DNA of 64,000 bases from a virus. A model generated the notes under the pieces. The model saw nothing but the letters and a program-made list of their open reading frames with translations. It ran no database searches and was not told where the DNA came from. Of the stretch, positions 1,050 to 44,797 are shown piece by piece. The position numbers and the translations under genes are program-made. Each line of letters begins with the position of its first letter. Position 1 is the first letter of the stretch. The DNA is taken from the IMG/VR virus record IMGVR_UViG_3300045135_002615, positions 1 to 64,000 of that record; one strand, given 5' to 3'.

Positions 1050-1079
1050 ATGGTTGTACTAGGCAAAAGGAGCAACCAT
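1050..1079 (+). promoter_or_regulatory. Leader hairpin with SD in the loop
   Basis: ATGGTTG (1050-1056) pairs with CAACCAT (1073-1079). The loop holds the SD AAAAGGAG (1065-1072), and the right arm contains the first two bases of the ATG at 1078. The same design recurs at 13316-13353 and 23292-23318. Confidence 0.5.
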
Positions 1080-2037
1080 GATCGACTTTCTCTCACCACC
1101 GATCCTTTTTAACCCACCCCGTATAGCAAGCGAAAGAGACTCATATCGGCTATCTAAGATAGCCCTGTATCAGTTCAAGCAAGCGAACACTATGGATAAG
1201 AGGGCTAACTGGCTTGGTAACGTCATTAGCTCAGGTCTTACGAAGATCGAGAACTTCTTTAAGCACATCACAGATGCGGTGTTTGGTGCTTTTCAAAAGA
1301 TCATCATCTCTACACCTGTAGTCACACAAGCGACCCGTATTTTTCAGAGACTCGCCTATGATAGACTTCTTGTGAACTTCTTCAGGGCATGGGAAATCGG
1401 AGCAGGTGACTTCAAAGCAAAACGACCGCAGAGAGATGAGCGAGATGTTAAGCGTATTGCCAAATACGCACCTTATGAGGTCTACTTGATGGGCTTTGAG
1501 GGTCGCCCTTCAGAAGACACGATTCCTCTTGCTGAGAAGCTCGCTAGGAAGTCTTTAGGTGCTAGGACTGTATCTCTCATTCTTCTTGAGATGGTTAATC
1601 TCTTCAACCCGATTAAGACAATGCACTATCTTGTAAAGATAAAAGACTTGTGGGGGACAAGTAGAAAAGATTATGTTGCAATGAGAGCTCTATGGTCGCT
1701 CCCAGGTATCATTTTTCAAAGCAAGATGATGCTCTCTGCCTTTGGGATGTCTTTTTTGAGTGGCTTTGGCCTACCCGTAGCTATCGTAGGTGCTTTAGCT
1801 TACTACGGCGTGTCTGACATTCTCATCAAAGATTCAAGAGTGTTTAAGAAACTTATCAAGACAATCCATAAAGAGACACGATATCGGTATAGCCCTCACG
1901 ATCTCGTCAAGAAAATCCCGCCCAAAGATGTCTACCTTCAAGTAGCTCAAGACAGGTATGTCAATGTCTTGAAAGCCCCGAAAGAAGACATCGAACACGC
2001 CGTCGAGATCGGCAAGAAGCAAAAGGACAAGTTATGA
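1078..2037 (+). CDS. Tandem paralogue family member A, 319 aa
   Basis: First of three adjacent paralogues. Shared features are an N-terminus of the form MI(D/N)FL..P, a short RIAS motif at 15-18, a KIA..QF motif near 27-33, an FFQ(M/K/T)(I)I-type amphipathic segment near 70-95, a GARTVSLI block at 161-168 and a long hydrophobic region at 208-245. The protein is basic. The start has a strong SD (AAAAGGAG). The stop overlaps the next start by 4 nt (ATGA), which suggests translational coupling. No enzymatic motif is visible. A virion-internal or membrane-associated role is possible but is only inference. Confidence 0.9.
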   Translation: MIDFLSPPILFNPPRIASERDSYRLSKIALYQFKQANTMDKRANWLGNVISSGLTKIENFFKHITDAVFGAFQKIIISTPVVTQATRIFQRLAYDRLLVNFFRAWEIGAGDFKAKRPQRDERDVKRIAKYAPYEVYLMGFEGRPSEDTIPLAEKLARKSLGARTVSLILLEMVNLFNPIKTMHYLVKIKDLWGTSRKDYVAMRALWSLPGIIFQSKMMLSAFGMSFLSGFGLPVAIVGALAYYGVSDILIKDSRVFKKLIKTIHKETRYRYSPHDLVKKIPPKDVYLQVAQDRYVNVLKAPKEDIEHAVEIGKKQKDKL

Positions 2038-3005
2038 TCAACTTCCTACTACCCCCTGAAGAGTTCGCTCTTATCCGCATCGCTAGTGTAAACCCTTATC
2101 AACTAGGACGTATTGCACATCGTCAGTTCCGATATGCAAACACTAGAGTTAAGAGAGCCAACTGGTTATGGAATGCTCTTAAAGCTGGTGTTGCATGGGT
2201 CAAGGACTTGCCGAATAAGATGGCAAACCTCTTCTATGGCTTCTTTCAGATGATCATTGTTAAGGCACCTATAGTCGCTCAGATTACTAGGCTTTTCCAA
2301 AAGCTAGCATATAAGAGAATACTTGTTCTTCTTCACCGTTCATGGTCATATGGTAGAGAAGATAAGAGCTATGAGAACCCCATGAGAAACGAGAGGGGTT
2401 TGAGAGATTTACACCCTCACTTAGACTACCCCTCATATGTTATGGGTTATGAAGGTAAGCCCGATAGTTCTCTCCCCAAGAGAGCTATCGAGATCGCTAA
2501 AAGAGAGCTTGGAGCTAGGACTGTATCCCTGATGATAAGGGACGCTTTGCGTTCTATTAACCCTATCCCACAACTAAAGATATTCTTCGATGGTGAAGTT
2601 AGAGAGTATGGGAAGGTTTATAGGTTTAAGGCAAAAAATACACCTTTTAGGCACGCCATCCCTCTTCTCCTTAAAAGTTTCTTTCTCATGATTTTTGGTC
2701 TCAAGTTCATGGCTACCATAGGTGTCTATGGTGTGAGTGGTCTTGTTATTGCGGCAATGACCCAGTACACAGCAAAAGAGGTGTTCACTTCAAATGAAGG
2801 TTCCGCGACATACTCAAGTGTTGCAAAAAGCGTCCGAGAGTTCTGGATTAAATATGTTCAGAGGAAGGATCTACTCAAAACATTAAGCCCAAGAGATGTC
2901 TTTGTGAGGACTAATGAAGACACCTTCAAATCTGTTCTTGAAGTACCCAAGAAAAACATAGAACAGGCAGATGAGGCCCACCCTATCGTAAGCCCAACGA
3001 AATAG
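2034..3005 (+). CDS. Tandem paralogue family member B, 323 aa
   Basis: Second paralogue, coupled to the first by an ATGA overlap. It has the same landmarks: MINFL..P start, RIASV, RIA..QF near residue 30, FFQMIIVKAPIVAQITRLFQ near 70-90, GARTVSLM, a SINPI motif and a hydrophobic segment around residues 220-247. The conserved blocks are better preserved than the termini, as expected for an old tandem duplication. Function unknown. It reads with member A from the same likely promoter, while member C has its own box and leader hairpin. Confidence 0.9.
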   Translation: MINFLLPPEEFALIRIASVNPYQLGRIAHRQFRYANTRVKRANWLWNALKAGVAWVKDLPNKMANLFYGFFQMIIVKAPIVAQITRLFQKLAYKRILVLLHRSWSYGREDKSYENPMRNERGLRDLHPHLDYPSYVMGYEGKPDSSLPKRAIEIAKRELGARTVSLMIRDALRSINPIPQLKIFFDGEVREYGKVYRFKAKNTPFRHAIPLLLKSFFLMIFGLKFMATIGVYGVSGLVIAAMTQYTAKEVFTSNEGSATYSSVAKSVREFWIKYVQRKDLLKTLSPRDVFVRTNEDTFKSVLEVPKKNIEQADEAHPIVSPTK

Positions 3006-3012
3006 TTTTTTC

Positions 3013-3054
3013 TTTTATAGCCTCACATAAGCACACTCAATTTATGTGAGGCTA
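3013..3054 (+). promoter_or_regulatory. TTTTATAG box plus 13-bp leader hairpin before member C
   Basis: TTTTATAG (3013-3020) is followed at once by a perfect inverted repeat, TAGCCTCACATAA (3018-3030) and TTATGTGAGGCTA (3042-3054), with an 11-nt loop. The hairpin ends 3 nt before the ATG at 3058 and contains the only SD-like GAGG in its right arm. There is no T tract, so it is not a simple terminator. A 5' leader structure that limits ribosome access is the best reading. Confidence 0.55.
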
Positions 3055-3057
3055 CAC

Positions 3058-3981
3058 ATGATCAACTTTCTAAGTAACCCTTCTGACTTCCGTACTCAGA
3101 GCTACCGCGTAGCTTCTGTCTCCCCTTCTCATCTAGCTAAGATTGCTTCTATGCAATACAGCACCCGCCTCCCCCTTCAGAAGAAGGTCAAGTGGGCGAC
3201 TAATGTCATGGCGACCCCTAAGATCGCAGGCATTCGTGACATTGGGAAGAAGGTCTCCGATGCCTTCTTCTCCTTCTTTCAAACACTCTTTGTTAAGACA
3301 CCTGTAATTAAGCAGATCTTGGCTGTCTATCGTAAGGTTGCTGAGAAGAGGCTCAGAGAGATCCTCCATAAATCATGGAAGGTGGCTTTTGACGACCTTT
3401 CTAATTTTGTGACTGTTCCGAAGTCACGCATTAACTTCTTGAAGACATATGGGAAGAACTACTTCTACGATGTCTACCTAGAGACTTTCCAATCAGGTAG
3501 TATAGGTGCGGCTAAGGCATTATTACCTAACCTACAGCAAAGAGCAAAAGATATCGCTGAGAGAGAGATCGGCTTCCGACTAATCTCCTCTCTCGCAAGA
3601 GATGCTCTCCGTTCAATCAACCCCTTCTCCCACATGAAACAGATGAACAATGTATTTGAGTACCTTTATGATAGTTTCAGAACACCTGAACCAGGTGAGA
3701 AAAAGAAGTTAAAAGAGCCCCCTATCGGCTTCATCCTCCCAATGTTCCTTAAGTCAGTCCTTCTTTACATGGCATGGGGTTTTCTATCTACTGCTACCCT
3801 CTCTCCTGTTTTGTTACTTGCCTTTGCAAACTACTCCCCCAAGGAGATATACGCAGCACAGGAGAAGATGGGTCTTGTCAAGTACTTAACTAGGACACTC
3901 GGCAAGGGTTGGAATTGGCTGTCCTTCGGTGACCCTAATAAGGGTCAAGACCCTTCTACACTATGGGCTGAGGGCTTCTAA
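3058..3981 (+). CDS. Tandem paralogue family member C, 307 aa
   Basis: Third paralogue. I chose the ATG at 3058 because it gives the MINFLSNP start matching its two neighbours; a GTG 12 nt upstream is in frame but lies inside the leader hairpin. RVASV, KIASMQY, FFSFFQTLFVKTPV and a SINPF block align with members A and B. A hydrophobic stretch lies near residues 235-260. The C-terminus is shorter and ends in a polar tail. Function unknown. Confidence 0.88.
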   Translation: MINFLSNPSDFRTQSYRVASVSPSHLAKIASMQYSTRLPLQKKVKWATNVMATPKIAGIRDIGKKVSDAFFSFFQTLFVKTPVIKQILAVYRKVAEKRLREILHKSWKVAFDDLSNFVTVPKSRINFLKTYGKNYFYDVYLETFQSGSIGAAKALLPNLQQRAKDIAEREIGFRLISSLARDALRSINPFSHMKQMNNVFEYLYDSFRTPEPGEKKKLKEPPIGFILPMFLKSVLLYMAWGFLSTATLSPVLLLAFANYSPKEIYAAQEKMGLVKYLTRTLGKGWNWLSFGDPNKGQDPSTLWAEGF

Positions 3982-4081: not shown

Positions 4082-4885
4082 ATGAGCGGAACTAAGTACA
4101 ACTGGACATCTATTGAGAATGCGATTAAGAATGCGATTAAGCGAGAGGGGACGGACCCGACAGGGAGGGTGTTCATTTATGCAGACCTCCGTGGATTAGA
4201 CCTTAGTGGTCTTGACCTCAGCGGACTTGATCTCACCAAAGCTGACCTCAGAAAGGCTAAGCTCACAGGTGCGAACCTTGAGGGGACGGACCTCAGATGG
4301 GCTAACCTCAAGGGGGCGGATCTGAGCGGGGCTATCCTCACAGGGGCATCTCTCAGCGGGGTTAACCTCAGTGGGTTTAACCTCAGTGGGTTTAACCTAA
4401 CAGGTGCTAGTCTCTATAAAGCTAACCTCAAGGGTGCGAACCTGAAGGGTGCTGACCTCAGCGGGGCTTTCCTCGCGTGGGCTGAGCTCAAGGGGGCTGA
4501 TCTCACCAACGCTACCCTCACAGGTGCAGACCTAACTAAGGCGAAACTCAGAGGTCAAGACCTGAGTGGTCTTGACCTCAGTGGGGCTAACCTCAGATGG
4601 GCTAACATCAGAAAGGCTACTCTCATTGGTACTGACCTAACAGGTGCTATCCTTGAGGGGGCGTGGCTCACAGGGTCTAACTTCACGGGTGCTGACCTAA
4701 CAGGGGCTAACCTATCTAAGCTCAAAAGCTCATTCCTCAAAGAGACTAACTTCACGGGTGCGAACCTCAGTGGAGCGAACCTTACCAAATCTGACTTCAG
4801 CGGAGCTGACCTTACTGACGCTGACCTTACAGGTGCTGAGTTTAACAAGGTTGAAGAACCACTTCTTCTCTCTGATCTCTTATAA
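4082..4885 (+). CDS. Pentapeptide-repeat protein 1, 267 aa
   Basis: From about residue 30 to the C-terminus the protein is an almost uninterrupted run of A(D/N)LxX pentapeptides (for example ADLRK, ANLEG, ADLSG). These are diagnostic of a right-handed quadrilateral beta-helix. Known members of this fold include DNA-mimic gyrase inhibitors (MfpA, Qnr), but most phage members are uncharacterised. No membrane segment or fused catalytic domain is visible. It is one of five pentapeptide-repeat genes in the window. It is bounded by a TATAAATA box upstream and a strong terminator downstream, so it is probably monocistronic. The repeat codon pattern creates a long antisense ORF that I regard as spurious. 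Confidence 0.93.
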   Translation: MSGTKYNWTSIENAIKNAIKREGTDPTGRVFIYADLRGLDLSGLDLSGLDLTKADLRKAKLTGANLEGTDLRWANLKGADLSGAILTGASLSGVNLSGFNLSGFNLTGASLYKANLKGANLKGADLSGAFLAWAELKGADLTNATLTGADLTKAKLRGQDLSGLDLSGANLRWANIRKATLIGTDLTGAILEGAWLTGSNFTGADLTGANLSKLKSSFLKETNFTGANLSGANLTKSDFSGADLTDADLTGAEFNKVEEPLLLSDLL

Positions 4886-5515: not shown

Positions 5516-6019
5516 ATGGCTGTTGCCTTTAAACGTAATCAGATACTCACAAGAGGTGACCTCGACATCTTCCTCACTAACTCATCAGGGAATGTCGCTA
5601 ACGCCTCTAGTATCTCATACGCTCTATACTTCGTTGACCCTGGTCCACCCGAAACAGATGTACTCATCGGTGACCCCCAACGTATCCCCGAAAACCCATC
5701 TATCGGTGAATACTACGCATCCGTTCGTATCCCTACTACCGCTACCTATGGTCGCTATCGTATCCGATGGACCCTTAAAGAGTTTGTTAACTCAAACGCT
5801 CAGACCGTTGTCCAAGAGTTTGAAGTCGTCCCTGAGAACTCCGTGCTCGGTCCTGAGATGTCCAACGGCGAAAAACAAATGGTCTATAAGCTCCGTATGC
5901 TCCTAAGAGACCAATGCCTCGGTGGTGAGGAACAAATCACCATTGACGCTGATGGTGAAAAGATTACTCTCTCCATAGAGGAGCTATATGACATCATAGG
6001 GGAGACAGGCAATGCTTGA
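5516..6019 (+). CDS. Fractured virion-type protein, piece 1, with split intein half IntN1
   Basis: Residues 1-133 are the N-extein. Its beta-rich first part (about 1-105) resembles an Ig-like or tail-associated domain, and it ends in the helix MVYKLRMLLRDQ. Residues 134-167 are an N-terminal split-intein half that begins with Cys134 (CLGGEEQITI, block A) and then stops. The matching C-half opens the protein at 6110. After trans-splicing, the ending RDQ would join CPDKFYHFRPP. The leader hairpin hides its SD. It is the first cistron of a tightly overlapped operon running to 8453. The family name of the host protein is not certain to me. I recall its pieces resembling a continuous virion protein of other large phages, which would need a search to confirm. 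Confidence 0.9.
   Translation: MAVAFKRNQILTRGDLDIFLTNSSGNVANASSISYALYFVDPGPPETDVLIGDPQRIPENPSIGEYYASVRIPTTATYGRYRIRWTLKEFVNSNAQTVVQEFEVVPENSVLGPEMSNGEKQMVYKLRMLLRDQCLGGEEQITIDADGEKITLSIEELYDIIGETGNA
5915..6016 (+). other. Split intein N-half 1 (IntN1), 34 residues
   Basis: It starts with the Cys nucleophile at 5915-5917 in a CLGGEEQITI block A and is strongly acidic. It ends at the gene's stop codon. Its size and composition fit known short phage IntN pieces. The partner is IntC1 at 6110-6496. Confidence 0.88.
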
Positions 6020-6113
6020 AGGACTGCTAACTAAGTTTGAACTCACAAGAGAGCAACTAAATAAAAAAGGTCGAGTCTCTAAAGAGATTGTAGAAAAGGA
6101 GCTTGGTCTATGA
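6012..6113 (+). CDS. 33-aa ORF bridging pieces 1 and 2
   Basis: The ATG at 6012 lies within the last codons of piece 1, and its TGA overlaps the ATG of piece 2. Translation would therefore be coupled through the break. The predicted peptide (LLTKFELTREQL near the start, VSKEIVEKELGL at the end) looks like two helices and could be a helix-turn-helix remnant. At the second break the equivalent position holds a full endonuclease gene. The ORF may be a decayed homing gene or simply a coupling ORF. Expression is unproven. Confidence 0.5.
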   Translation: MLEGLLTKFELTREQLNKKGRVSKEIVEKELGL

Positions 6114-6496
6114 CATCTCAAGAGAAAACACAGAAGATCAAAGATGCCTTCCAAAAAGGAAAACTCACCATCAAATCTATGGACTCTCAAGGTGAGTTCT
6201 CTTGGAAGCAAATCTCTAAAGCACACAAGAACCCGACACCAGTTGAACCCATATATAAAATCACCACTGAGCAAGGGAAGCAACTCATAGTCACAGGAGG
6301 GCATCGTGTGTATATGAGCCCTAACCTCTGTGTCCCCGCTGAAGATCTCTCTGTCGGTCTTAGCCTACAGACAACACAAGGCTTAACTAAGGTCTCCCAT
6401 ATCGAGGTCATACAAAACAGACCCTTTATGTTCGACCTGACCGTAGAGGATAACCATAACCTTGTACTAGAAGGTTCTGATGTGGTCGTACACAAC
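6110..6496 (+). other. Split intein C-half 1 (IntC1), 129 residues
   Basis: It carries block B (TGGH), block F and the invariant C-terminal His-Asn, followed by the Cys +1 nucleophile of the extein. There is no endonuclease domain. It should pair with IntN1 at 5915-6016. Confidence 0.9.
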
Positions 6497-6880
6497 TGCC
6501 CTGATAAGTTTTACCATTTCAGACCTCCCGAGCATGAATCCAACATCGGATCATACAATCAAGTCTTCGGTCAAGTATGGGAAGATGCCGAGTTCCTTGA
6601 GTACCTTGAGAGAGCACTCGATTGGTGGAACCTCCAACCTCCCGAAACTGAGAACCTCTCAAATATGGATCAACTCATCTCTCAAAAGCCCGCATGGAGA
6701 ACTCCCATCCTTCAAGGTGCTATTCAGTTCGCTGCTATGGCTCTACAAGCAAATTGGATCGTGGACGAATTCTCGGTTAGGGGGGATACCGACTTAGAGG
6801 TATTACTCCCTAGTGGGGAGAAGGTTAAGCTCACGATTGAAGAACTTCATGAGATTATAAAAGAGGAGGGTGAGGAGTAA
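6110..6880 (+). CDS. Fractured virion-type protein, piece 2: IntC1, middle extein, IntN2
   Basis: Residues 1-129 are a C-terminal split-intein half. It has a basic helix, a block B TxxH motif (VTGGH, about 61-65), a block F region (FMFDLTVEDNHNLVL, 106-120) and the terminal HN before Cys130. Residues 130-221 are the middle extein (CPDKFYHFRPP to NWIVDEF), helical and Trp-rich. Residues 222-256 are a second N-half starting with Ser222 (SVRGDTDLEV), with the same IEEL(Y/H)(D/E)II motif as IntN1. One polypeptide thus carries IntC at its front and IntN at its back. The stop overlaps the next ATG by 1 nt. Confidence 0.92.
   Translation: MTSQEKTQKIKDAFQKGKLTIKSMDSQGEFSWKQISKAHKNPTPVEPIYKITTEQGKQLIVTGGHRVYMSPNLCVPAEDLSVGLSLQTTQGLTKVSHIEVIQNRPFMFDLTVEDNHNLVLEGSDVVVHNCPDKFYHFRPPEHESNIGSYNQVFGQVWEDAEFLEYLERALDWWNLQPPETENLSNMDQLISQKPAWRTPILQGAIQFAAMALQANWIVDEFSVRGDTDLEVLLPSGEKVKLTIEELHEIIKEEGEE
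6773..6877 (+). other. Split intein N-half 2 (IntN2), 35 residues, Ser-1 nucleophile
   Basis: The half begins at the TCG codon at 6773 as SVRGDTDLEV, so residue 1 is Ser rather than Cys, and it ends with an acidic tail. The TIEELHEII motif matches the SIEELYDII of IntN1. The partner is IntC2 at 7827-8231, whose +1 residue is also Ser. Confidence 0.87.
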
Positions 6881-7827
6881 TGTTGAAGCAAAGACACCTC
6901 ATAATGAAATACGGGTTTAACCAAAGGCACTTAAAGAGTTTGATTGAGGAGGGTATCCTTAAGACCTTGCCCACAGAGGGCAAACGTAAAGTACCCCTCA
7001 TAGACCCTGAAAGTTTTGAAAGTCTTTTAGAAGGGGTACACTACCTCTCATGTAAGGAGTGTGGGTCGAGGGTTGCTCAAGTGTCACCAATGCACTTGAA
7101 ATCTTGTTCAGGCTTGTCTTTAGACTCCTACTTTAAGAAGCACACGGATGCTCCATACATGTGTGAGTTCACAAAGAAGAACAAGAAGAAGTCAGAGGAG
7201 CAAAAGATAAGACAGTCCGAAACCCTCAAGGCAAGGTTCAAGACCCCTGAAGGCGAGATCACCCGAAGGCAGATTAGTGAAGCAAGTATAAAAATGCAAC
7301 AGAGTGAGGTGGGAGATCGCATCAAAGATGCTCTTAGAGAAAATAACAAAAACCCTATCTCTCTCGCTAAAAAGAGCAAAAAGTCTAAAGCAATGTGGGC
7401 TACCAAGTCCCATCAAGAAAAGATAAAAAAGTGGCACAAGGATAACCGAGATCAAGTCCTTGAAAGCTGTAAGTACGCAAGAGAACACATCTCCCACACT
7501 TACACAAAACCGCACCATACTTTGAAACAGATGCTTGTTTCAGAGGGTATCGAGACTTTGACTGAACATAGCGTTTCTCACTACCATATAGATGAAGCCA
7601 TACCTTCTCTCAAAATCGCTATAGAGGTTGATGGGTGTTATTGGCATGGGTGCGATGCCTGTGGGTTTACCCCCACAAAAAGAATCGCAGGGAATGATAA
7701 AGCCAAAAACACAAACCTATCTAAGCTAGGGTGGGCTGTGCTTAGGTTAAAAGAACACGAGGTCTATGGTGACCCTGACTCTTGTCTTGAAAGAATAAAA
7801 AACCTAATCCAGCAAAGGAGCGTATGA
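6880..7827 (+). CDS. Free-standing Vsr-like (EDxHD-type) homing endonuclease inside the gene break
   Basis: The N-terminus (1-50) looks like a DNA-binding helical module. A zinc finger follows (C58, C61, H72, C76) with a conserved SLDSYF trailer. A long lysine-rich helical linker spans about 95-200. The catalytic domain at about 205-310 has HIDEAIP (D238), AIEVDGCYWHGC (E249, D251, H256) and GWAVLRLKEHEV, as in very-short-patch-repair-like nucleases. Endonucleases of this class are known between halves of genes split by split inteins. The gene overlaps its upstream neighbour by 1 nt and its downstream neighbour by 4 nt. It probably spreads the fractured arrangement by homing. Confidence 0.88.
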   Translation: MLKQRHLIMKYGFNQRHLKSLIEEGILKTLPTEGKRKVPLIDPESFESLLEGVHYLSCKECGSRVAQVSPMHLKSCSGLSLDSYFKKHTDAPYMCEFTKKNKKKSEEQKIRQSETLKARFKTPEGEITRRQISEASIKMQQSEVGDRIKDALRENNKNPISLAKKSKKSKAMWATKSHQEKIKKWHKDNRDQVLESCKYAREHISHTYTKPHHTLKQMLVSEGIETLTEHSVSHYHIDEAIPSLKIAIEVDGCYWHGCDACGFTPTKRIAGNDKAKNTNLSKLGWAVLRLKEHEVYGDPDSCLERIKNLIQQRSV

Positions 7828-8231
7828 TGGACAACTCGACCAAACAAGCAATCAAGCAGGCTTTCTTACAAGGGGAGCTTAAAGTTCTCTCCGTAGATAA
7901 CGACACCAACCAAGTAGACTACCAAGTCATCTCGGATGTGATGAAGCATCATACTCCACATAAGAGAATACTTCGAGTAGAACTCGATAATGGTCAGTTC
8001 GTCATCGCTACCCAAGACCACTCCCTATTCACTATCGAAGAGGGTAAAATCAAAGCCATTGAAACAGATCAGTTTTCTGTTGGAGATACTCTCGCTATCG
8101 TTGAAGACGGTCAAGTCAAAGGGTGTCTTATCACTAACATCTCTCAAGAGGATGACTGCGAACACACTTATGACCTCTGTGTGCCTAGGAACGAAAACTT
8201 TGTGCTTGCTAACGGAATACTAGCCCACAAC
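7827..8231 (+). other. Split intein C-half 2 (IntC2), 135 residues
   Basis: It has block B TQDH and block F with LCVPRNENFVL, and ends GILAHN before Ser +1 at 8232. It pairs with the Ser-1 IntN2. No endonuclease insertion is present. Confidence 0.88.
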
Positions 8232-8453
8232 TCGTATTCGATAGGTGGTATCAGCTTAGACTTAGACCGCTCCTCTAAGTATGAGTCTCTAAAGTCCACC
8301 GCTGAGTCCATGTGGTCTCAATCCGTTGAAGCAAAAGCACGCACTACCAAGTTTATGCGAGGTCTAAGGCAACCTAAATATGGTGTCGGTATTCGCAGTA
8401 GTTTTGGTCCTGCGGTTGGGCGAGGCGTTCTTTCACCGAGAAACTTTCTTTGA
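7827..8453 (+). CDS. Fractured virion-type protein, piece 3: IntC2 plus C-extein
   Basis: I chose the ATG at 7827, which lies 6 nt after the SD AAAGGAG; an ATG at 7824 is also possible. Residues 1-135 are IntC2, with TQDH (block B), EHTYDLCVPRNENFVL (block F) and the ending AHN. Residues 136-208 are the C-extein, starting SYSIGGISLDLDRSSKYESL and ending in a Gly/Arg-rich tail (GVGIRSSFGPAVGRG). Joining pieces 1, 2 and 3 would give a protein of 133 + 92 + 73 = 298 residues. The tail composition fits a structural protein. Confidence 0.9.
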   Translation: MDNSTKQAIKQAFLQGELKVLSVDNDTNQVDYQVISDVMKHHTPHKRILRVELDNGQFVIATQDHSLFTIEEGKIKAIETDQFSVGDTLAIVEDGQVKGCLITNISQEDDCEHTYDLCVPRNENFVLANGILAHNSYSIGGISLDLDRSSKYESLKSTAESMWSQSVEAKARTTKFMRGLRQPKYGVGIRSSFGPAVGRGVLSPRNFL

Positions 8454-8553: not shown

Positions 8554-8724
8554 ATGTCAACTCATTGCCCTGCGTGTAAGAAGCAGGTGAGCCCAAAGGG
8601 GCTGCCAGGTCATATAAAAAAGTGCTCTCTATGGGACACCAAGATTGGGGTCCCATCATCAGAGTTCAACTTTGATGAATACTTCCAAAGGGGTTTGTAT
8701 GAGCCTCAAGGGTGCTACTTTTGA
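8554..8724 (+). CDS. 56-aa zinc-finger protein, likely homing-endonuclease fragment
   Basis: The peptide has CPACKK and a GHIKKC motif (C-x2-C ... H-x3-C), followed by FNFDEYF. The same order (C-x2-C, HLKSC, SLDSYF) occurs at residues 58-85 of the endonuclease at 6880. The rest of such a nuclease is absent, so this is either a stand-alone finger or a truncated homing gene. The ATG has SD GAAAGGA. The 3' end overlaps the pentapeptide gene starting at 8699 by 26 nt in another frame. Confidence 0.7.
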   Translation: MSTHCPACKKQVSPKGLPGHIKKCSLWDTKIGVPSSEFNFDEYFQRGLYEPQGCYF

Positions 8725-9634
8725 GGGTTGTCTTCTTGATGAGGTATTCTTCCACGAGTGTGACTCCTCATCACTTGAGGGTGTGGCCTTTGAGGGTTGT
8801 ACTTTGGGTGGTTACTTTGAGAAGTTCGAGGAGGCTACTTTCGTAGACTGCGAGGATGAGGACTACGAGGAAGACGAGGATGAGGTGGAAGTTGAGGACT
8901 TTCACGTTGACCTCTCGGAGTATGACATCTCGGAGTATGACATCTCGGAGATTGACCTCATCAAATTCATCGCTCAGCTCAAGGCGGAGCATGCCCCCGA
9001 AGCCCTACAGCTCACGGGGGCTGACCTCAGCGGTGCTGACCTCAGCGGAGCTGACCTCAGCGAGGTGGAGTTCTTCTCTGAGATTGACCTCACAGGGGCT
9101 AACCTCAGCGGTGCGAACCTCACTGATGCGTTCTTCGATGGGGTGAACCTCCGCGAGGCTGACCTCAGCGGTGCAAACCTCACGGGGGCGATCATCACGC
9201 CCGCCTCGCTCAAGCTCGCTAACCTCACAGGGGCTAACCTCAGCGGTGCTTGTCTCGGAGGCGACCTCTCAGGATCTAACCTCAGCGGTGCGACCTTGAC
9301 GGGGGCAGAGCTGATCGGTGCAACCCTGAAGGGTGCTGACCTCAGCGGTGCTGACCTGACGGGTGCGAACCTGAGCGGTGCGGACCTGACGGGTGCGGAC
9401 CTCTCAGGGGCTAAGCTCACAGGTGCTAAGCTCACTGAGGCTAACCTTGAGGGTGCTAACCTTGAGGGTGCTGACCTCACGGGGACTGACCTCACCCTCA
9501 CCAAGCTCGCTTATGGGGACTTGAGAGGGGTGACCCTCAAGGGTGCAGTCTTCGCCAACACCGACCTCACCAACGCCGACCTTGATGGTGTGAAACTCAC
9601 CAAGACCCAAATCAAGGCGGCGACCAAATCATAA
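8699..9634 (+). CDS. Pentapeptide-repeat protein 2, 311 aa, with acidic insert
   Basis: I chose the ATG at 8699 because AAGGGG lies 6 nt upstream and inside the preceding ORF; in-frame starts at 8675 (ATG) and 8645 (TTG) lack this. Residues 1-50 are degenerate repeats of the GATFEGC type. An acidic linker follows (about 53-95; DEDYEEDEDE, then SEYDIS repeats). From about residue 105 to the end runs a long regular A(D/N)LSG beta-helix. An 88-nt segment (8769-8856) is nearly identical to one in the next pentapeptide gene. The fold is secure; the target is unknown. Confidence 0.9.
   Translation: MSLKGATFEGCLLDEVFFHECDSSSLEGVAFEGCTLGGYFEKFEEATFVDCEDEDYEEDEDEVEVEDFHVDLSEYDISEYDISEIDLIKFIAQLKAEHAPEALQLTGADLSGADLSGADLSEVEFFSEIDLTGANLSGANLTDAFFDGVNLREADLSGANLTGAIITPASLKLANLTGANLSGACLGGDLSGSNLSGATLTGAELIGATLKGADLSGADLTGANLSGADLTGADLSGAKLTGAKLTEANLEGANLEGADLTGTDLTLTKLAYGDLRGVTLKGAVFANTDLTNADLDGVKLTKTQIKAATKS
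8769..8856 (+). repeat. 88-bp direct repeat, copy 1
   Basis: It matches 10351-10438 with three mismatches by my reading and encodes the same repeat-to-acidic-tail junction in both pentapeptide genes. It indicates duplication or gene conversion between neighbours. Confidence 0.85.
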
Positions 9635-9872: not shown

Positions 9873-10496
9873 ATGTCAGACAAGAAGATTATAGATTTTG
9901 ATGAGTATGAGTGGAACTACGGCGACGATACCGTAAACTACGAAGGTCATGCTTTTTGGTTAAAGTTTGATGGTGACCTGACAGGTCACACCCTCACAGG
10001 GGCAACCATTGAGGGCACCCTCTTCAAGGGTGCGGATCTCAGGGGGGCAACCATTAAGGTAGAGGCTCTCACAGAGAGCCTCTTTGTGGATTGCAACCTT
10101 GAGGGTGCAACCCTCTCGGCAACTAATCGAGGCGTGAACCGCGTAGTCTGGACGGGCTGCAACCTTCGTGGTGCAACCATCAAGAACACCTGGCTTGATG
10201 GGGTATGCTTAAGGAACTGCGACCTTCGTGATGTAACATTCGAGGGCTGCTTATTTGATGTATATAATACTGTCCTTCTTCAAGATTGCAACCTGCAAGG
10301 TGCAACCTTTAAGGATTGCTCCTTGAGCTCTGATTTCGTTCTTCATGGGACATCACTTGAGGGTGTAACCTTTGAGGGTTGTACTTTGGGTGGTTACTTT
10401 GAGAAGTTCGAGGAGGCTACTTTCGTGGACTGCGAGGACAGGACTACGAGGACTACGAGGACTACGAGGATGACGAGGACTAAGAACCTCACCTAG
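9873..10496 (+). CDS. Pentapeptide-repeat protein 3, 207 aa, Cys-rich type with frameshifted tail
   Basis: Residues 30-175 contain degenerate pentapeptides of the pattern (D/N)CNLxGATFKDC, with Cys at regular intervals; this is a looser beta-helix than proteins 1 and 2. The C-terminal segment TFEGCTLGGYFEKFEEATF is shared with protein 2. The reading frame then runs through a GAC-TAC-GAG repeat in the wrong register, giving a basic RTTRTTRTTR tail. One extra base would give an acidic EDYEDYEDYEDDED tail ending at 10483. SD AAGGAAAAG precedes the ATG. A CATATAA box lies upstream and a terminator downstream. Confidence 0.87.
   Translation: MSDKKIIDFDEYEWNYGDDTVNYEGHAFWLKFDGDLTGHTLTGATIEGTLFKGADLRGATIKVEALTESLFVDCNLEGATLSATNRGVNRVVWTGCNLRGATIKNTWLDGVCLRNCDLRDVTFEGCLFDVYNTVLLQDCNLQGATFKDCSLSSDFVLHGTSLEGVTFEGCTLGGYFEKFEEATFVDCEDRTTRTTRTTRMTRTKNLT
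10351..10438 (+). repeat. 88-bp direct repeat, copy 2
   Basis: Copy of 8769-8856 with three mismatches. The sequence just after it is where the two genes diverge and where the frame changes. Confidence 0.85.
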
Positions 10497-18231: not shown

Positions 18232-18888
18232 ATGTTTAATCTCTTTAACTACAGCAAGAGGGATCTCACCGCCGCCATTGCGGGGGTCAAAGCACTCACG
18301 GGTGCTAAGCTTCGTAATGCCCCACTAGGTGCGGTTGATCTCTCTTATGCAGATCTCTCTTATGCAGACCTAAGAGGAGCTGATCTCACAGGTGCGAACC
18401 TAACAGGTGCTAAGCTCACAATGGCTAGGCTCAAAGGAGCTGACCTCACGGGTGCTGACCTCACAGGGACTACTTTGAGTATGGTGAGAGCCCCTCAAGC
18501 GAACTTCACGGGGGCGTATGCTCCTTTGAGTGATCCTGCTCTCTTTAATGGTGCGGAGCTAACAGGAGCTATCTTTGAGAGGGCTCTTTTGGACTCATCA
18601 CTCTTTAAGAGTGCCATTCTAAAGGATGTAAACTTTACTGAAGCCTCTCTCATCGAGGCGAACTTCAAGAAGGCAGAGTGTAAGGGGACAGACTTTGTAT
18701 ACGCCAACATGGAGCGTGTGAAGTTTGACTCGGCAGAGCTGACAGATGTGAGCTTCATCTCTGCGAACTTGAGTTATGCCGACTTTGAGGATGCCACCTT
18801 GACAGAGGTGGACTTCAGAGAGGCTACGACAACTAGAATTCGATTATTAGACGCGGTTATGTCCCGCATTGAGACAGACGAGGCGTAA
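18232..18888 (+). CDS. Pentapeptide-repeat protein 5, 218 aa
   Basis: After a short N-terminal helix (1-20), repeats of the A(D/N)LxX form run to the end (for example ADLRG, ANLTG, ANFKK, ADFED), making a compact right-handed beta-helix. Phe replaces Leu at many central positions in the second half. It is translated directly after a 17-bp hairpin. It is followed 6 nt later by a small membrane protein gene, so the two are probably cotranscribed and may work together. Target unknown. Confidence 0.9.
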   Translation: MFNLFNYSKRDLTAAIAGVKALTGAKLRNAPLGAVDLSYADLSYADLRGADLTGANLTGAKLTMARLKGADLTGADLTGTTLSMVRAPQANFTGAYAPLSDPALFNGAELTGAIFERALLDSSLFKSAILKDVNFTEASLIEANFKKAECKGTDFVYANMERVKFDSAELTDVSFISANLSYADFEDATLTEVDFREATTTRIRLLDAVMSRIETDEA

Positions 18889-41896: not shown

Positions 41897-44797
41897 ATGA
41901 GTGAAGAAAAACTATTGAAGACAATTGAACGACTAAGAGAGATCAGGGCTAAAGAGGACTTGAACCCACCTCCCTCAAAAATCTTGAGGTCACATCTCCC
42001 TAATGGGGTAGAACTGAAGCTACGTCAGTATCAGATACAGGGTATCTTACACTTGATCGCCATGCCACGCTTTGTTTTGGGAGACGACACTGGGTTGGGG
42101 AAGTGCGTTACGGGAGACACCCTCATCTCTACAGATAAGGGGTTACTCCCAATTGCTTCTTTAAATCCTGGAGTGTCTGAACCTGACACATTCGTCCCTT
42201 TTGATGGCGATGCTCAAGTTGTTGTGAGAGGCGAAACCCGTAGGATAAGAAGCTTCTACTATGGTGGGCTTAAGCCTACAGTTAAGATCCGCACCCGCAG
42301 AGGATATGAGATTGAAGGGTCTCACATCCACCCCTTACTTGTTAGGGGTGAAGATGGCTCTGAGGATTGGGTGAAGATGTCTGATCTTAAAGAGGGCGAC
42401 ACCCTTTGTTTAAATCGAAGCTCTTATGTAAGTGAGTGCCACACAGTTAAACTCGTCCAAATACCTCAAGGACAACCTGGTGAAAAAAAATATCGTGTAC
42501 CACAGGTGCTTGATAGCAGACTAGCACGACTCTTTGGGTACCTTGTTTCTGAGGGTTGGTTCAACCATGACTATCATTTCAACGTGGCACAATGCTTGGA
42601 GAAGAACCCCGAAGTCTGTCGTGACATTGAGGACTGTTTTACGGCACTCTCTGACTATAAACCTAGATATGCAGATGGTGTCTACTCTATATCAAGCAGT
42701 TACCTCATACGCTTTTTAGAGGCACAAGGATTGACTAAAGGAGTCGCTAAAGATAAGGCGGTGCCTTTTTGTGTGTTAAGGGCAAACCCTTCTCTCCAAG
42801 CAGAGTTTTTAAAAGCCCTGTTTGAGGCTGAGGGACATGTATCTCAAGAGACGATTGAGATCAGTTCCGCTTCATCGACACTCCTAAAGCAAGTTCAAAC
42901 TATGCTTCTTAGCTTTGGGGTGCTCTCTACGAGAAGGGAAAAATATGTCAAAGGATACGACCACACATATTGGAGGCTAACCATTACGGGAGCGGACACT
43001 AAGTGCTTCATGTCTCAAATTGGTATGGTTAGCTCTCGTAAGATAGAGGCTCTTAAAAACATATGTTCTAAGATAGGTGGTAACACCAATCTAGATACTG
43101 TACCTCACACGAAGGAGCTATTTGAGAGGTATCGGCTCAAAGTCGCACACCCTACAAAACATGGCAACTCTTTTGTAGGGACTCTTGGTCATATCAGAGC
43201 AGAGAGACGCAATCCGAGCTACGACTTCATTCGCAAATGTGTCCGTGACATTCATGTTGACGGAGAACTTCAGGACATTCTAGCTAACAACTACTTCTAT
43301 GACCCGATTGTGGAGGTCACCTATGGTGAGGCAGAGGTTTTCGACATTGAGGTCGATCACCCAGAGCACTCATTTGTTGGGAACGGATTCGTATGTCACA
43401 ACACATTGCAGTCCATCGCAGCCCTCTCATATATTTGGGATAAGAACCCATCTATCCCCGCTCTCATCTGCACAACAAAGTCCGCCGTAGGGCAATGGGA
43501 ATCCGAGTTCGATAAGTTCACTCATGGGGTCAAGGTCTTTAAATGCCTCGGCACTAAAAAGAAGCGTGAAAAGATCCATAACGAGTTCAACCTCGCTGAA
43601 GGTCCAAAAGTGATCATCATGGGATACCGCACCGCTGTGCAAGACTTCCAATACATTCAACACATGGTAGGGCATGTTGTCATCTTTGATGAAGCTACCG
43701 CTTTTAAAAATGACACCTCTCAAGTCCATCAGGTGTGTAAGCACATGGCAGGGTCTGCCGAGCGTGTATGGTCTCTATCTGCGACCATCATCAAGAATAG
43801 GCTCATGGAAGCATGGGCTATCTACAAAGTCACAGTCCCTCACTTATTTGGTGCAAAGACACACTTCATGCGTGAGTATTGCATCACCCGTGATCAAACT
43901 ATACCTGGCTCTCGCCGCCGTATTCAGATTGTGGTGGGTCACAGGAAGCGTGACATCCAAGCCTTCCGTGAGCACATTGATGCTTATTTCTTAGGTCGCC
44001 CTAAACATGAGGTTGCTCAAGAGCTACCACCTCTCACAACTAAGATCATTGAATGTGAACTCTCTAAGGCTCAGAAGAACAAGTATGCAGAAGCCCTTCA
44101 AGGGTTACTTGAGTACCTAGACCCTGAGACAGGGGAGCTTGCCGAGCGTGAAGTAAGTAAGCTCACCGCAGTCACCGTCTGCCAACAGATTGTGAACCAC
44201 CCCGCCCTTGTAGATTGTGAGGGAGATAGCGGGAAGCTCGATACCCTCTTAGACTTGGTGACTAATGAACTTGAAGGTGAGAAGGTGATTGTGTTCTCTC
44301 GCTTCAGGGGTATGGTTGACATCTTAGAGGCGGAGCTCAATGGTAAGGGTATTCAGACCTGTCGTATCACGGGAGCTGAGTCGGGTGATGAGCGTTTAGC
44401 CTCTCAGAAGGCGTTTCAAGACCCTGAGAGTGAGACAAAGGTATGCCTCATCACAATGGCTGCCGCAGAGGGTGTAAATCTACAACTCGCTAAGGCGGTT
44501 ATCTTTTATGATACCCCTTGGTCAGCAGGAGACTACCTTCAAATCGTAGGTCGTATGATCCGTATTGGGTCTATCCATGACAAGGTGTTCAGCTATCACA
44601 TCTGTGCCCCTAAGACCATTGATGATAGAGTGATGAAAACCCTCAAAGCTAAGATGGGTCTTATCGAAGCGGTACTCGGTAAGAGGCTAAAGGAAGATGG
44701 TGAGTCAGACGCTATCGTAGAGGTAGGTCAATCTGAGCTGGCGGACATCTTTGACGGGCTTCTTGAGGATGCCCAAGAGATCATTAAGGTGAAGTGA
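41897..44797 (+). CDS. SNF2-type DNA helicase/ATPase precursor with in-frame intein, 966 aa
   Basis: The extein is 533 residues. Motif Q/I region LRQYQIQGI...DDTGLGK (residues 43-69) continues after the intein with TLQSIAALSYIW. Motif II is VIFDEATAFKN, motif III SLSATIIKN, and the C-terminal lobe has VIVFSRFRGMVDIL, MAAAEGVNLQLA and QIVGRMIRIGS (motif VI). This is a compact SNF2-like ATPase such as phages use in replication or recombination. The protein is inactive until splicing because the Walker A loop is interrupted after GK. SD AAGGAG. A bidirectional-looking terminator follows. Confidence 0.92.
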   Translation: MSEEKLLKTIERLREIRAKEDLNPPPSKILRSHLPNGVELKLRQYQIQGILHLIAMPRFVLGDDTGLGKCVTGDTLISTDKGLLPIASLNPGVSEPDTFVPFDGDAQVVVRGETRRIRSFYYGGLKPTVKIRTRRGYEIEGSHIHPLLVRGEDGSEDWVKMSDLKEGDTLCLNRSSYVSECHTVKLVQIPQGQPGEKKYRVPQVLDSRLARLFGYLVSEGWFNHDYHFNVAQCLEKNPEVCRDIEDCFTALSDYKPRYADGVYSISSSYLIRFLEAQGLTKGVAKDKAVPFCVLRANPSLQAEFLKALFEAEGHVSQETIEISSASSTLLKQVQTMLLSFGVLSTRREKYVKGYDHTYWRLTITGADTKCFMSQIGMVSSRKIEALKNICSKIGGNTNLDTVPHTKELFERYRLKVAHPTKHGNSFVGTLGHIRAERRNPSYDFIRKCVRDIHVDGELQDILANNYFYDPIVEVTYGEAEVFDIEVDHPEHSFVGNGFVCHNTLQSIAALSYIWDKNPSIPALICTTKSAVGQWESEFDKFTHGVKVFKCLGTKKKREKIHNEFNLAEGPKVIIMGYRTAVQDFQYIQHMVGHVVIFDEATAFKNDTSQVHQVCKHMAGSAERVWSLSATIIKNRLMEAWAIYKVTVPHLFGAKTHFMREYCITRDQTIPGSRRRIQIVVGHRKRDIQAFREHIDAYFLGRPKHEVAQELPPLTTKIIECELSKAQKNKYAEALQGLLEYLDPETGELAEREVSKLTAVTVCQQIVNHPALVDCEGDSGKLDTLLDLVTNELEGEKVIVFSRFRGMVDILEAELNGKGIQTCRITGAESGDERLASQKAFQDPESETKVCLITMAAAEGVNLQLAKAVIFYDTPWSAGDYLQIVGRMIRIGSIHDKVFSYHICAPKTIDDRVMKTLKAKMGLIEAVLGKRLKEDGESDAIVEVGQSELADIFDGLLEDAQEIIKVK
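42104..43402 (+). mobile_element. LAGLIDADG intein, 433 residues, in the Walker A site
   Basis: It starts with Cys (CVTGDTLISTDKG, block A) and ends GFVCHN with Thr as the +1 residue. Block B is GSHIHPLL. The two endonuclease dodecapeptides are RLFGYLVSEGWF and FLKALFEAEGHV. Block F is VFDIEVDHPEHSFVGNGF. The inserted site is between GLGK and TLQSI, the nucleotide-binding loop, a classic intein position. The intein appears intact for both splicing and homing. Confidence 0.95.

What the first reader, a model, noticed from the sequence alone, without database searches (positions are those of the whole stretch)
6110..6880. Middle piece has IntC-extein-IntN topology, the layout of protein-cyclising split inteins
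Seen: piece 2 starts with IntC1 and ends with IntN2. Known: an extein flanked by IntC at its front and IntN at its back is circularised if the two halves recognise each other. Inference: to avoid making a 92-residue circle the two inteins must be orthogonal. The switch from Cys (site 1) to Ser (site 2) nucleophiles and sequence divergence may enforce this; alternatively a cyclic product may be a regulated side product.
Basis: partly seen in the sequence, partly recalled or inferred. Interest (0 to 1): 0.8.

Follow-up and report, generated by a model that had tools for sequence, protein, structure and literature searches.

The report
Phage gene split by two inteins
A giant-phage gene is cut into three pieces that are predicted to be stitched together by two different self-splicing elements; the middle piece has the layout used to make protein circles, but its two ends belong to two separate elements whose chemistry probably stops a circle from forming.

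Summary
The ORF at 6110-6880 is IntC1 (129 aa), a 92-aa extein, then IntN2 (35 aa). Profiles built from distant relatives find IntC1 and IntN2 best in this ORF among 1,760. It is the middle third of a neck/connector-like protein that relatives encode unbroken. The IntC-extein-IntN order is not a cyclisation cassette. It results from two independent, site-specific inteins. Among 62 non-redundant alleles, 44 are empty, 6 have only site 1, 9 only site 2 and 3 both. Site 1 inteins are always Cys1 with a TnsA-like endonuclease when one is present; site 2 inteins are always Ser1 with a Vsr-like one. Tree support for the split is 100/100. The Cys/Ser difference therefore predates double occupancy. 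It may still block the circle: IntC2 has the NX histidine that Ser1 inteins need, while IntC1 has Asn there. AlphaFold folds IntN2 almost equally well beside the wrong partner, so docking is not excluded. Cyclisation is unlikely, but only an experiment can settle it. In addition, the window lost the site 1 endonuclease, and a sister phage lost the site 2 endonuclease and re-fused that intein.

The parts
5516..6019 (+). Piece 1: N-extein (133 aa) plus IntN1 (34 aa, Cys1, from 5915)
   Evidence: IntN1 HMM E 2e-9
6012..6113 (+). 34-codon remnant of the site 1 homing endonuclease (MLEGLLTKFELTREQLNKKGRVSKEIVEKELGL*); the interior is deleted between GAAAAG repeats
   Evidence: matches both ends of the full HEN in L049 and L004
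6110..6496 (+). IntC1 (129 aa): block B TGGH, block F FDLTVEDNHN, ends HN; no histidine at the NX column
6497..6772 (+). Middle extein, 92 aa, beginning with the +1 Cys
   Evidence: contiguous with its neighbours in unbroken homologues
6773..6880 (+). IntN2 (35 aa, Ser1) and stop codon
   Evidence: IntN2 HMM E 8.8e-11
6880..7827 (+). Free-standing Vsr-like homing endonuclease (HEN2) between IntN2 and IntC2
   Evidence: Pfam MTES_1575 1.3e-9, DUF559 9.7e-8, Vsr 6.1e-7; phrog homing endonuclease 2.8e-8
7824..8231 (+). IntC2 (136 aa): NX motif KH, block B TQDH, block F YDLCVPRNEN, ends HN
8232..8453 (+). C-extein (73 aa), beginning with the +1 Ser

Best explanation
A neck/connector-like gene of a roughly 300 kb phage was invaded at two sites by two different class 1 inteins. 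Both are atypically split (IntN 34-35 aa, IntC 129-136 aa in the window), each with its own free-standing homing endonuclease between the halves (the site 1 one is now a remnant in the window). Three polypeptides are translated. IntN1+IntC1 (Cys1/Cys+1) join pieces 1 and 2, and IntN2+IntC2 (Ser1/Ser+1) join pieces 2 and 3, giving a 298-aa protein. The IntC-extein-IntN layout of piece 2 follows from having split inteins at both of its borders and is not a device for making a circle. Cyclisation would need IntC1 to act on IntN2. These belong to inteins about 29% identical, and IntC1 lacks the NX histidine used to activate Ser1, so a circle is expected to be negligible. Shown: anatomy, gene-wide homology, site-specific clades, occupancy states. 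Inferred: actual splicing, non-reactivity of IntC1 with IntN2, identity of the host protein.
For: Unbroken homologues with zero-length junctions at both sites. All four intein pieces are recognised by independent profiles, each best in the expected ORF. Occupancy is both 3, site 1 only 6, site 2 only 9, empty 44; double occupancy is not depleted (Fisher P 0.36). Site 1 and site 2 inteins are separate clades at 100/100, with between-site identity 26% on average and 29% in the window. Endonucleases are site-specific: TnsA-like at site 1 (PF08722), Vsr-like at site 2. Class 1 catalytic residues are present in both. NX [KR]H is present in IntC2 and aligns with RH of PI-PkoII (2cw7) and KH of the Aes123 PolB1 intein (9hth), while IntC1 has Asn there. 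The NX His was critical in the three Ser1 inteins tested (PMC10189870). A cognate IntN2-IntC2 model from the sister phage matches intein structures over its whole length (Z 20.8, rmsd 1.6, 141 aligned, 1mi8).
Against: No splicing was measured. AlphaFold gives IntN2 the same strands and helix, and nearly the same confidence, when only IntC1 is present (about 90 against 93-96), so docking may not discriminate. Cross-reaction among split inteins was seen mostly for atypical, short-fragment splits (PMC7090010), which is this class. IntN2 is tethered to IntC1, so even weak affinity could matter. Most site 1 inteins carry a different histidine two residues before the NX column. Co-occupancy statistics rest on three cases.
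Confidence: 0.77

Rival explanations
1. Piece 2 does cyclise in the cell: IntC1 and IntN2 cross-react intramolecularly and make a 92-residue circle, as a costly side reaction or a regulated product that lowers the amount of full-length connector.
For: The IntC-extein-IntN order is exactly the engineered cyclisation layout. AlphaFold folds IntN2 confidently next to IntC1, and the extein ends are predicted flexible (residues 133-156 and 215-220 under pLDDT 50). Atypical short-fragment inteins are the ones that cross-reacted in a large test.
Against: The two halves come from different intein clades. Ser1 would sit in an active site without the NX histidine. Several Cys1 inteins die on C1S exchange (PMC10189870). 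Nothing in the relatives looks selected for a circle: the layout occurs only where both sites happen to be occupied.
Confidence: 0.08
2. The inteins discriminate at binding rather than chemistry: IntN2 does not dock on IntC1 at all because the interfaces diverged (for example the one-residue longer beta-turn in site 2 IntN, and IntC2 strongly acidic, net -11, against IntC1 neutral).
For: Site 2 IntN carries one extra residue in the hairpin; IntC charges differ. Site-specific profiles score the wrong IntN at 9.0 and 15.7 bits against 33.8 and 38.3 for the right one.
Against: AlphaFold does not show loss of structure for IntN2 beside IntC1. Both IntN are acidic, so charge does not separate them.
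Confidence: 0.35
3. The locus is a decayed gene: with the gene in pieces and one endonuclease deleted, the inteins no longer splice and the protein is lost or supplied by another copy.
For: The site 1 endonuclease is reduced to a 34-codon remnant.
Against: All pieces keep intact frames, starts, Shine-Dalgarno-like sequences and all catalytic residues; the exteins are about 80-90% identical to close relatives. No second copy of the connector gene was looked for in the remaining genome, so this is not fully excluded.
Confidence: 0.05

Closest known systems
Fractured genes with split inteins and Vsr-family homing endonucleases (Dassa et al. 2009, from own knowledge; the paper was not read here)
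   Same: A phage gene broken by a split intein with a free-standing endonuclease between the halves; a Vsr-like endonuclease at site 2.
   Different: Here one gene is broken twice. The host is a structural (connector-like) gene rather than DNA metabolism. Site 1 uses a TnsA-like endonuclease. IntN is only 30-37 aa.
Atypically split inteins: VidaL (6vgv), AceL-TerL, PolB16 OarG
   Same: Very short IntN with block B on the IntC side; VidaL is among the structural matches.
   Different: Sequence relation to VidaL is weak (E 0.099 for intein 1). Intein 2 is a Ser1 member with IntN of about 31-35 aa, against 15 aa in PolB16.
SICLOPPS / split-intein protein cyclisation (engineered IntC-target-IntN; from own knowledge)
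   Same: Order of parts in piece 2.
   Different: In the engineered system IntC and IntN come from one intein; here they come from two.
Engineered tandem trans-splicing from three segments with two orthogonal split inteins (PMC12707363)
   Same: Middle segment IntC(a)-extein-IntN(b) flanked by the two partners.
   Different: This one is natural, with one Cys1 and one Ser1 intein.
Double cis-inteins in haloarchaeal MCM (PMC10643990)
   Same: Two independently mobile inteins in one gene.
   Different: Those are contiguous inteins; here both are split, so a middle piece of cyclisation topology arises.

Membership tests
Class 1 intein (both inteins) | Cys/Ser at position 1, TxxH block B, block F Asp/His region, penultimate His and terminal Asn, Cys/Ser/Thr at +1 | tested here: met
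   Read directly in the sequences and alignments; Pfam PF14890 above cutoff
Class 1 intein (both inteins) | Hint fold formed by IntN plus IntC | tested here: met
   Intein 2, cognate pair from the sister phage: Z 20.8, rmsd 1.6, 141 aligned to 1mi8. For intein 1 only the IntC part was modelled: Z 11.4, rmsd 4.5, 121 aligned to 2cw7, model range 1-129
Class 1 intein (both inteins) | Splicing activity | not testable with these tools
   Needs expression of the pieces
Fractured gene with Vsr-type homing endonuclease | Split intein halves separated by a free-standing Vsr-like endonuclease ORF | tested here: met
   Site 2, HEN2 6880-7827. At site 1 only a remnant of a TnsA-like endonuclease is left
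Protein-cyclising split intein cassette | Order IntC-extein-IntN on one polypeptide | tested here: met
Protein-cyclising split intein cassette | IntC and IntN are cognate halves of one intein | tested here: not met
   IntC1 and IntN2 are assigned to different site clades
Ser1 (cysteine-independent) inteins with motif NX | Ser1, Ser/Thr+1 and [K/R]-His NX motif | tested here: met
   Intein 2: Ser1 and Ser+1; NX His invariant in the seven site 2 inteins of alignment A6 (H75), preceded by K/R in most; aligned with 2cw7 and 9hth. L119 and L126 have Q/E before the His. IntC2 has other cysteines, so it is not cysteine-free
Head-tail connector protein (host gene) | Homology to an annotated connector | tested here: inconclusive
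   27% identity over 94% to Tunturi_5 gp319, annotated as head-tail connector. No PHROG match and no significant Pfam match for the joined protein

The most novel reading that the evidence does not exclude
A natural three-piece gene in which two split inteins work side by side without crossing, with specificity carried by the chemistry (Cys1 site against Ser1 plus NX-His site) rather than by binding, so that the dangerous IntC1/IntN2 pairing docks but cannot react. The extreme version, that piece 2 really makes a circle in the cell, is put at about 0.08.
Probability: 0.3. Interest if true: 0.75.

Novelty: new variant of a known kind. Interest (0 to 1): 0.6.

Why it matters
It is a natural counterpart of engineered three-segment trans-splicing. 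The set of relatives (empty, either site alone, both, re-fused) makes two questions directly testable: how nature keeps split inteins from cross-reacting when they are tethered on one chain, and whether gene breaking by an endonuclease is reversible. It also supplies new split-intein pairs with short IntN (one Cys1, one Ser1) that coexist in one gene, which is useful for protein assembly.

Tried and rejected
1) Cyclisation cassette with cognate ends: rejected, the ends belong to different inteins. 2) Nucleophile switch as an adaptation to double occupancy: rejected, it is fixed per site also in singly occupied phages. 3) Avoidance of double occupancy: no sign, but power is low (P 0.36). 4) A single-chain AlphaFold competition with the sister phage's IntC1-extein-IntN2-IntC2-extein ORF was planned, but the alignment placed IntC2 rows on IntC1, so the cognate control was run from the extein onward instead. 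5) AlphaFold as a test of binding specificity: it folded IntN2 in both settings and gave no inter-domain error, so it cannot decide. 6) DNA search of annotated phages with the locus: no match. 7) Literature: in searches of the held library no natural gene broken by two split inteins turned up; most subscription journals are missing, so this is weak evidence. 8) Host-fold identification was not resolved: intein hits filled both structure lists.

Full report
What is there. Three consecutive ORFs on the + strand carry one protein in pieces. Piece 1 (5516-6019) is 133 residues of extein plus IntN1 (34 aa). Piece 2 (6110-6880) is IntC1 (129 aa), 92 residues of extein and IntN2 (35 aa). Piece 3 (7824-8453) is IntC2 (136 aa) plus 73 residues of extein. 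Between pieces 2 and 3 lies a free-standing endonuclease gene (6880-7827) of the Vsr/MTES_1575 type. Between pieces 1 and 2 lies only a 34-codon ORF. Each piece has a Shine-Dalgarno-like sequence before its start.

Is it more than chance? Profiles of the four intein parts, built without the window and its closest relatives (L002, L004, L008), were run against all 1,760 ORFs of 20 aa or more in the window. Each finds its expected ORF first (IntN1 2e-9, IntC1 1.5e-40, IntN2 8.8e-11, IntC2 1.7e-49); piece 2 is the top hit for both IntC1 and IntN2. Relatives encode the joined protein without interruption: a contiguous match of 204 residues in LR745208.1 (across site 2, which is empty there; its site 1 is occupied), 94% of the length in Tunturi_5 (annotated head-tail connector), and dozens of IMG/VR contigs with no residue lost or gained at either junction.

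Occupancy series. After removal of near-identical alleles, 62 remain: 44 empty at both sites, 6 with only site 1, 9 with only site 2, and 3 with both (the window; 3300020178_000002; 3300009514_000001). The third has both inteins split and both endonucleases present, so the same IntC1-extein-IntN2 middle piece occurs there too. Double occupancy is not rarer than expected (P 0.36), but numbers are small.

Two separate elements. Site 1 inteins (9) are all Cys1; where an endonuclease was examined it is TnsA-like (PF08722; further site 1 ORFs read by eye). Site 2 inteins (10 in the tree) are all Ser1, with a Vsr-like endonuclease when one is present. The tree separates the two sets at 100/100. Mean identity is 46% within a site and 26% between sites; in the window the two inteins are 29% identical. 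The Cys/Ser difference is therefore a property of the site lineage and predates their meeting in one gene.

The +1 residue travels with the intein. Empty alleles have Asn (51 of 53; 1 Asp, 1 Ala) at the first residue after site 1 and Asp (46 of 50; 4 Ser) after site 2. Occupied alleles have Cys or Ser (site 1) and Ser or Thr (site 2). Thus the spliced protein of the window should differ from the intein-free protein at both junctions.

Endonuclease loss and re-fusion. The 34-codon ORF at 6012-6113 starts like the site 1 endonuclease of the sister phage and ends with its last residues (EKELGL); the interior is missing between two copies of GAAAAG. In that sister phage (L002) the opposite happened. 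The site 1 endonuclease is whole, while at site 2 the endonuclease is gone and IntN2 runs in frame into IntC2 (...HEIIKEERMMDNLTK...), still carrying the former ribosome site and ATGATG start. The retained start codons suggest that the split came first and was healed by deletion across AGGAG (inference). L006 (site 1) and L119 (site 2) also have contiguous inteins without an endonuclease; their direction of change is not known.

Would piece 2 make a circle? Three lines bear on it. (1) Kinship: its two ends are halves of different inteins, and site-specific profiles score the wrong IntN 23-25 bits lower than the right one. (2) Chemistry: Ser1 inteins depend on a [K/R]-His motif (NX); changing the His abolished splicing or nearly so in three of them, and several Cys1 inteins die when Cys1 becomes Ser (PMC10189870). 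IntC2 has this His (aligned with the RH of PI-PkoII and the KH of Aes123 PolB1). IntC1 has Asn at that column, and other site 1 inteins mostly Ala. So Ser1 of IntN2 in IntC1 should be badly activated. The opposite mismatch (Cys1 of IntN1 in IntC2) is not protected in this way. (3) Structure: AlphaFold gives IntN2 the same two strands and helix with IntC1 alone (about 90) as with its true partner (93-96), and the extein ends next to the junctions are predicted flexible. Docking is thus not excluded, and short-fragment inteins are the class in which cross-reaction has been seen (PMC7090010). My estimate is that a substantial circle is unlikely (about 8%), and I cannot tell whether binding or chemistry is the guard.

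Verdict. Observation confirmed; interpretation partly supported. The layout is a by-product of two invasions by split inteins, a natural form of three-segment trans-splicing. Members of each kind are known (split inteins with Vsr-type endonucleases, atypical splits, Ser1 inteins). I found no report of one natural gene broken twice in this way, but the library searched is incomplete. The splicing itself is inferred, not shown.

Noticed in passing
42104-43402 (+): Contiguous 433-aa intein in a helicase gene (41897-44797), inserted directly after GLGK of the Walker A motif (Cys1, ends HN, +1 Thr).
   Followed up: partly
L068 (G000:C1 around 193466): Further contiguous intein in a ribonucleotide reductase-like ORF of the same phage genome (CVRGDTQILTDKG...), so the phage carries at least four inteins.
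   Followed up: partly
L002 6664-7170: Intein 2 of the sister phage is re-joined into one frame and keeps the ATGATG start and ribosome site of the former separate piece: an apparent reversal of a split intein by endonuclease deletion.
   Followed up: yes
L128, L130, L132, L156, residue after site 2: Alleles without a site 2 intein but with Ser in place of the usual Asp at +1; may be scars of a lost intein or simple variation.
   Followed up: no
8554-8724 (+): Short ORF (MSTHCPACKKQVSPKGLPGHIKKC...) resembling the zinc-finger-like N-terminal part of the Vsr-type endonuclease; similar fragments lie downstream of the connector gene in L018 and L020.
   Followed up: no
4082-4885, 8645-9634, 9873-10496, 18232-18888 (+): Several pentapeptide-repeat-like ORFs flank the locus (Pfam-tested only for 4082-4885); two share the stretch FEGCTLGGYFEKFEEATFVDCED.
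   Followed up: no
1078-3981 (+): Three neighbouring ORFs that look like paralogues (each with an M-I-[DN]-F-L start, 311-323 aa), function unknown.
   Followed up: no
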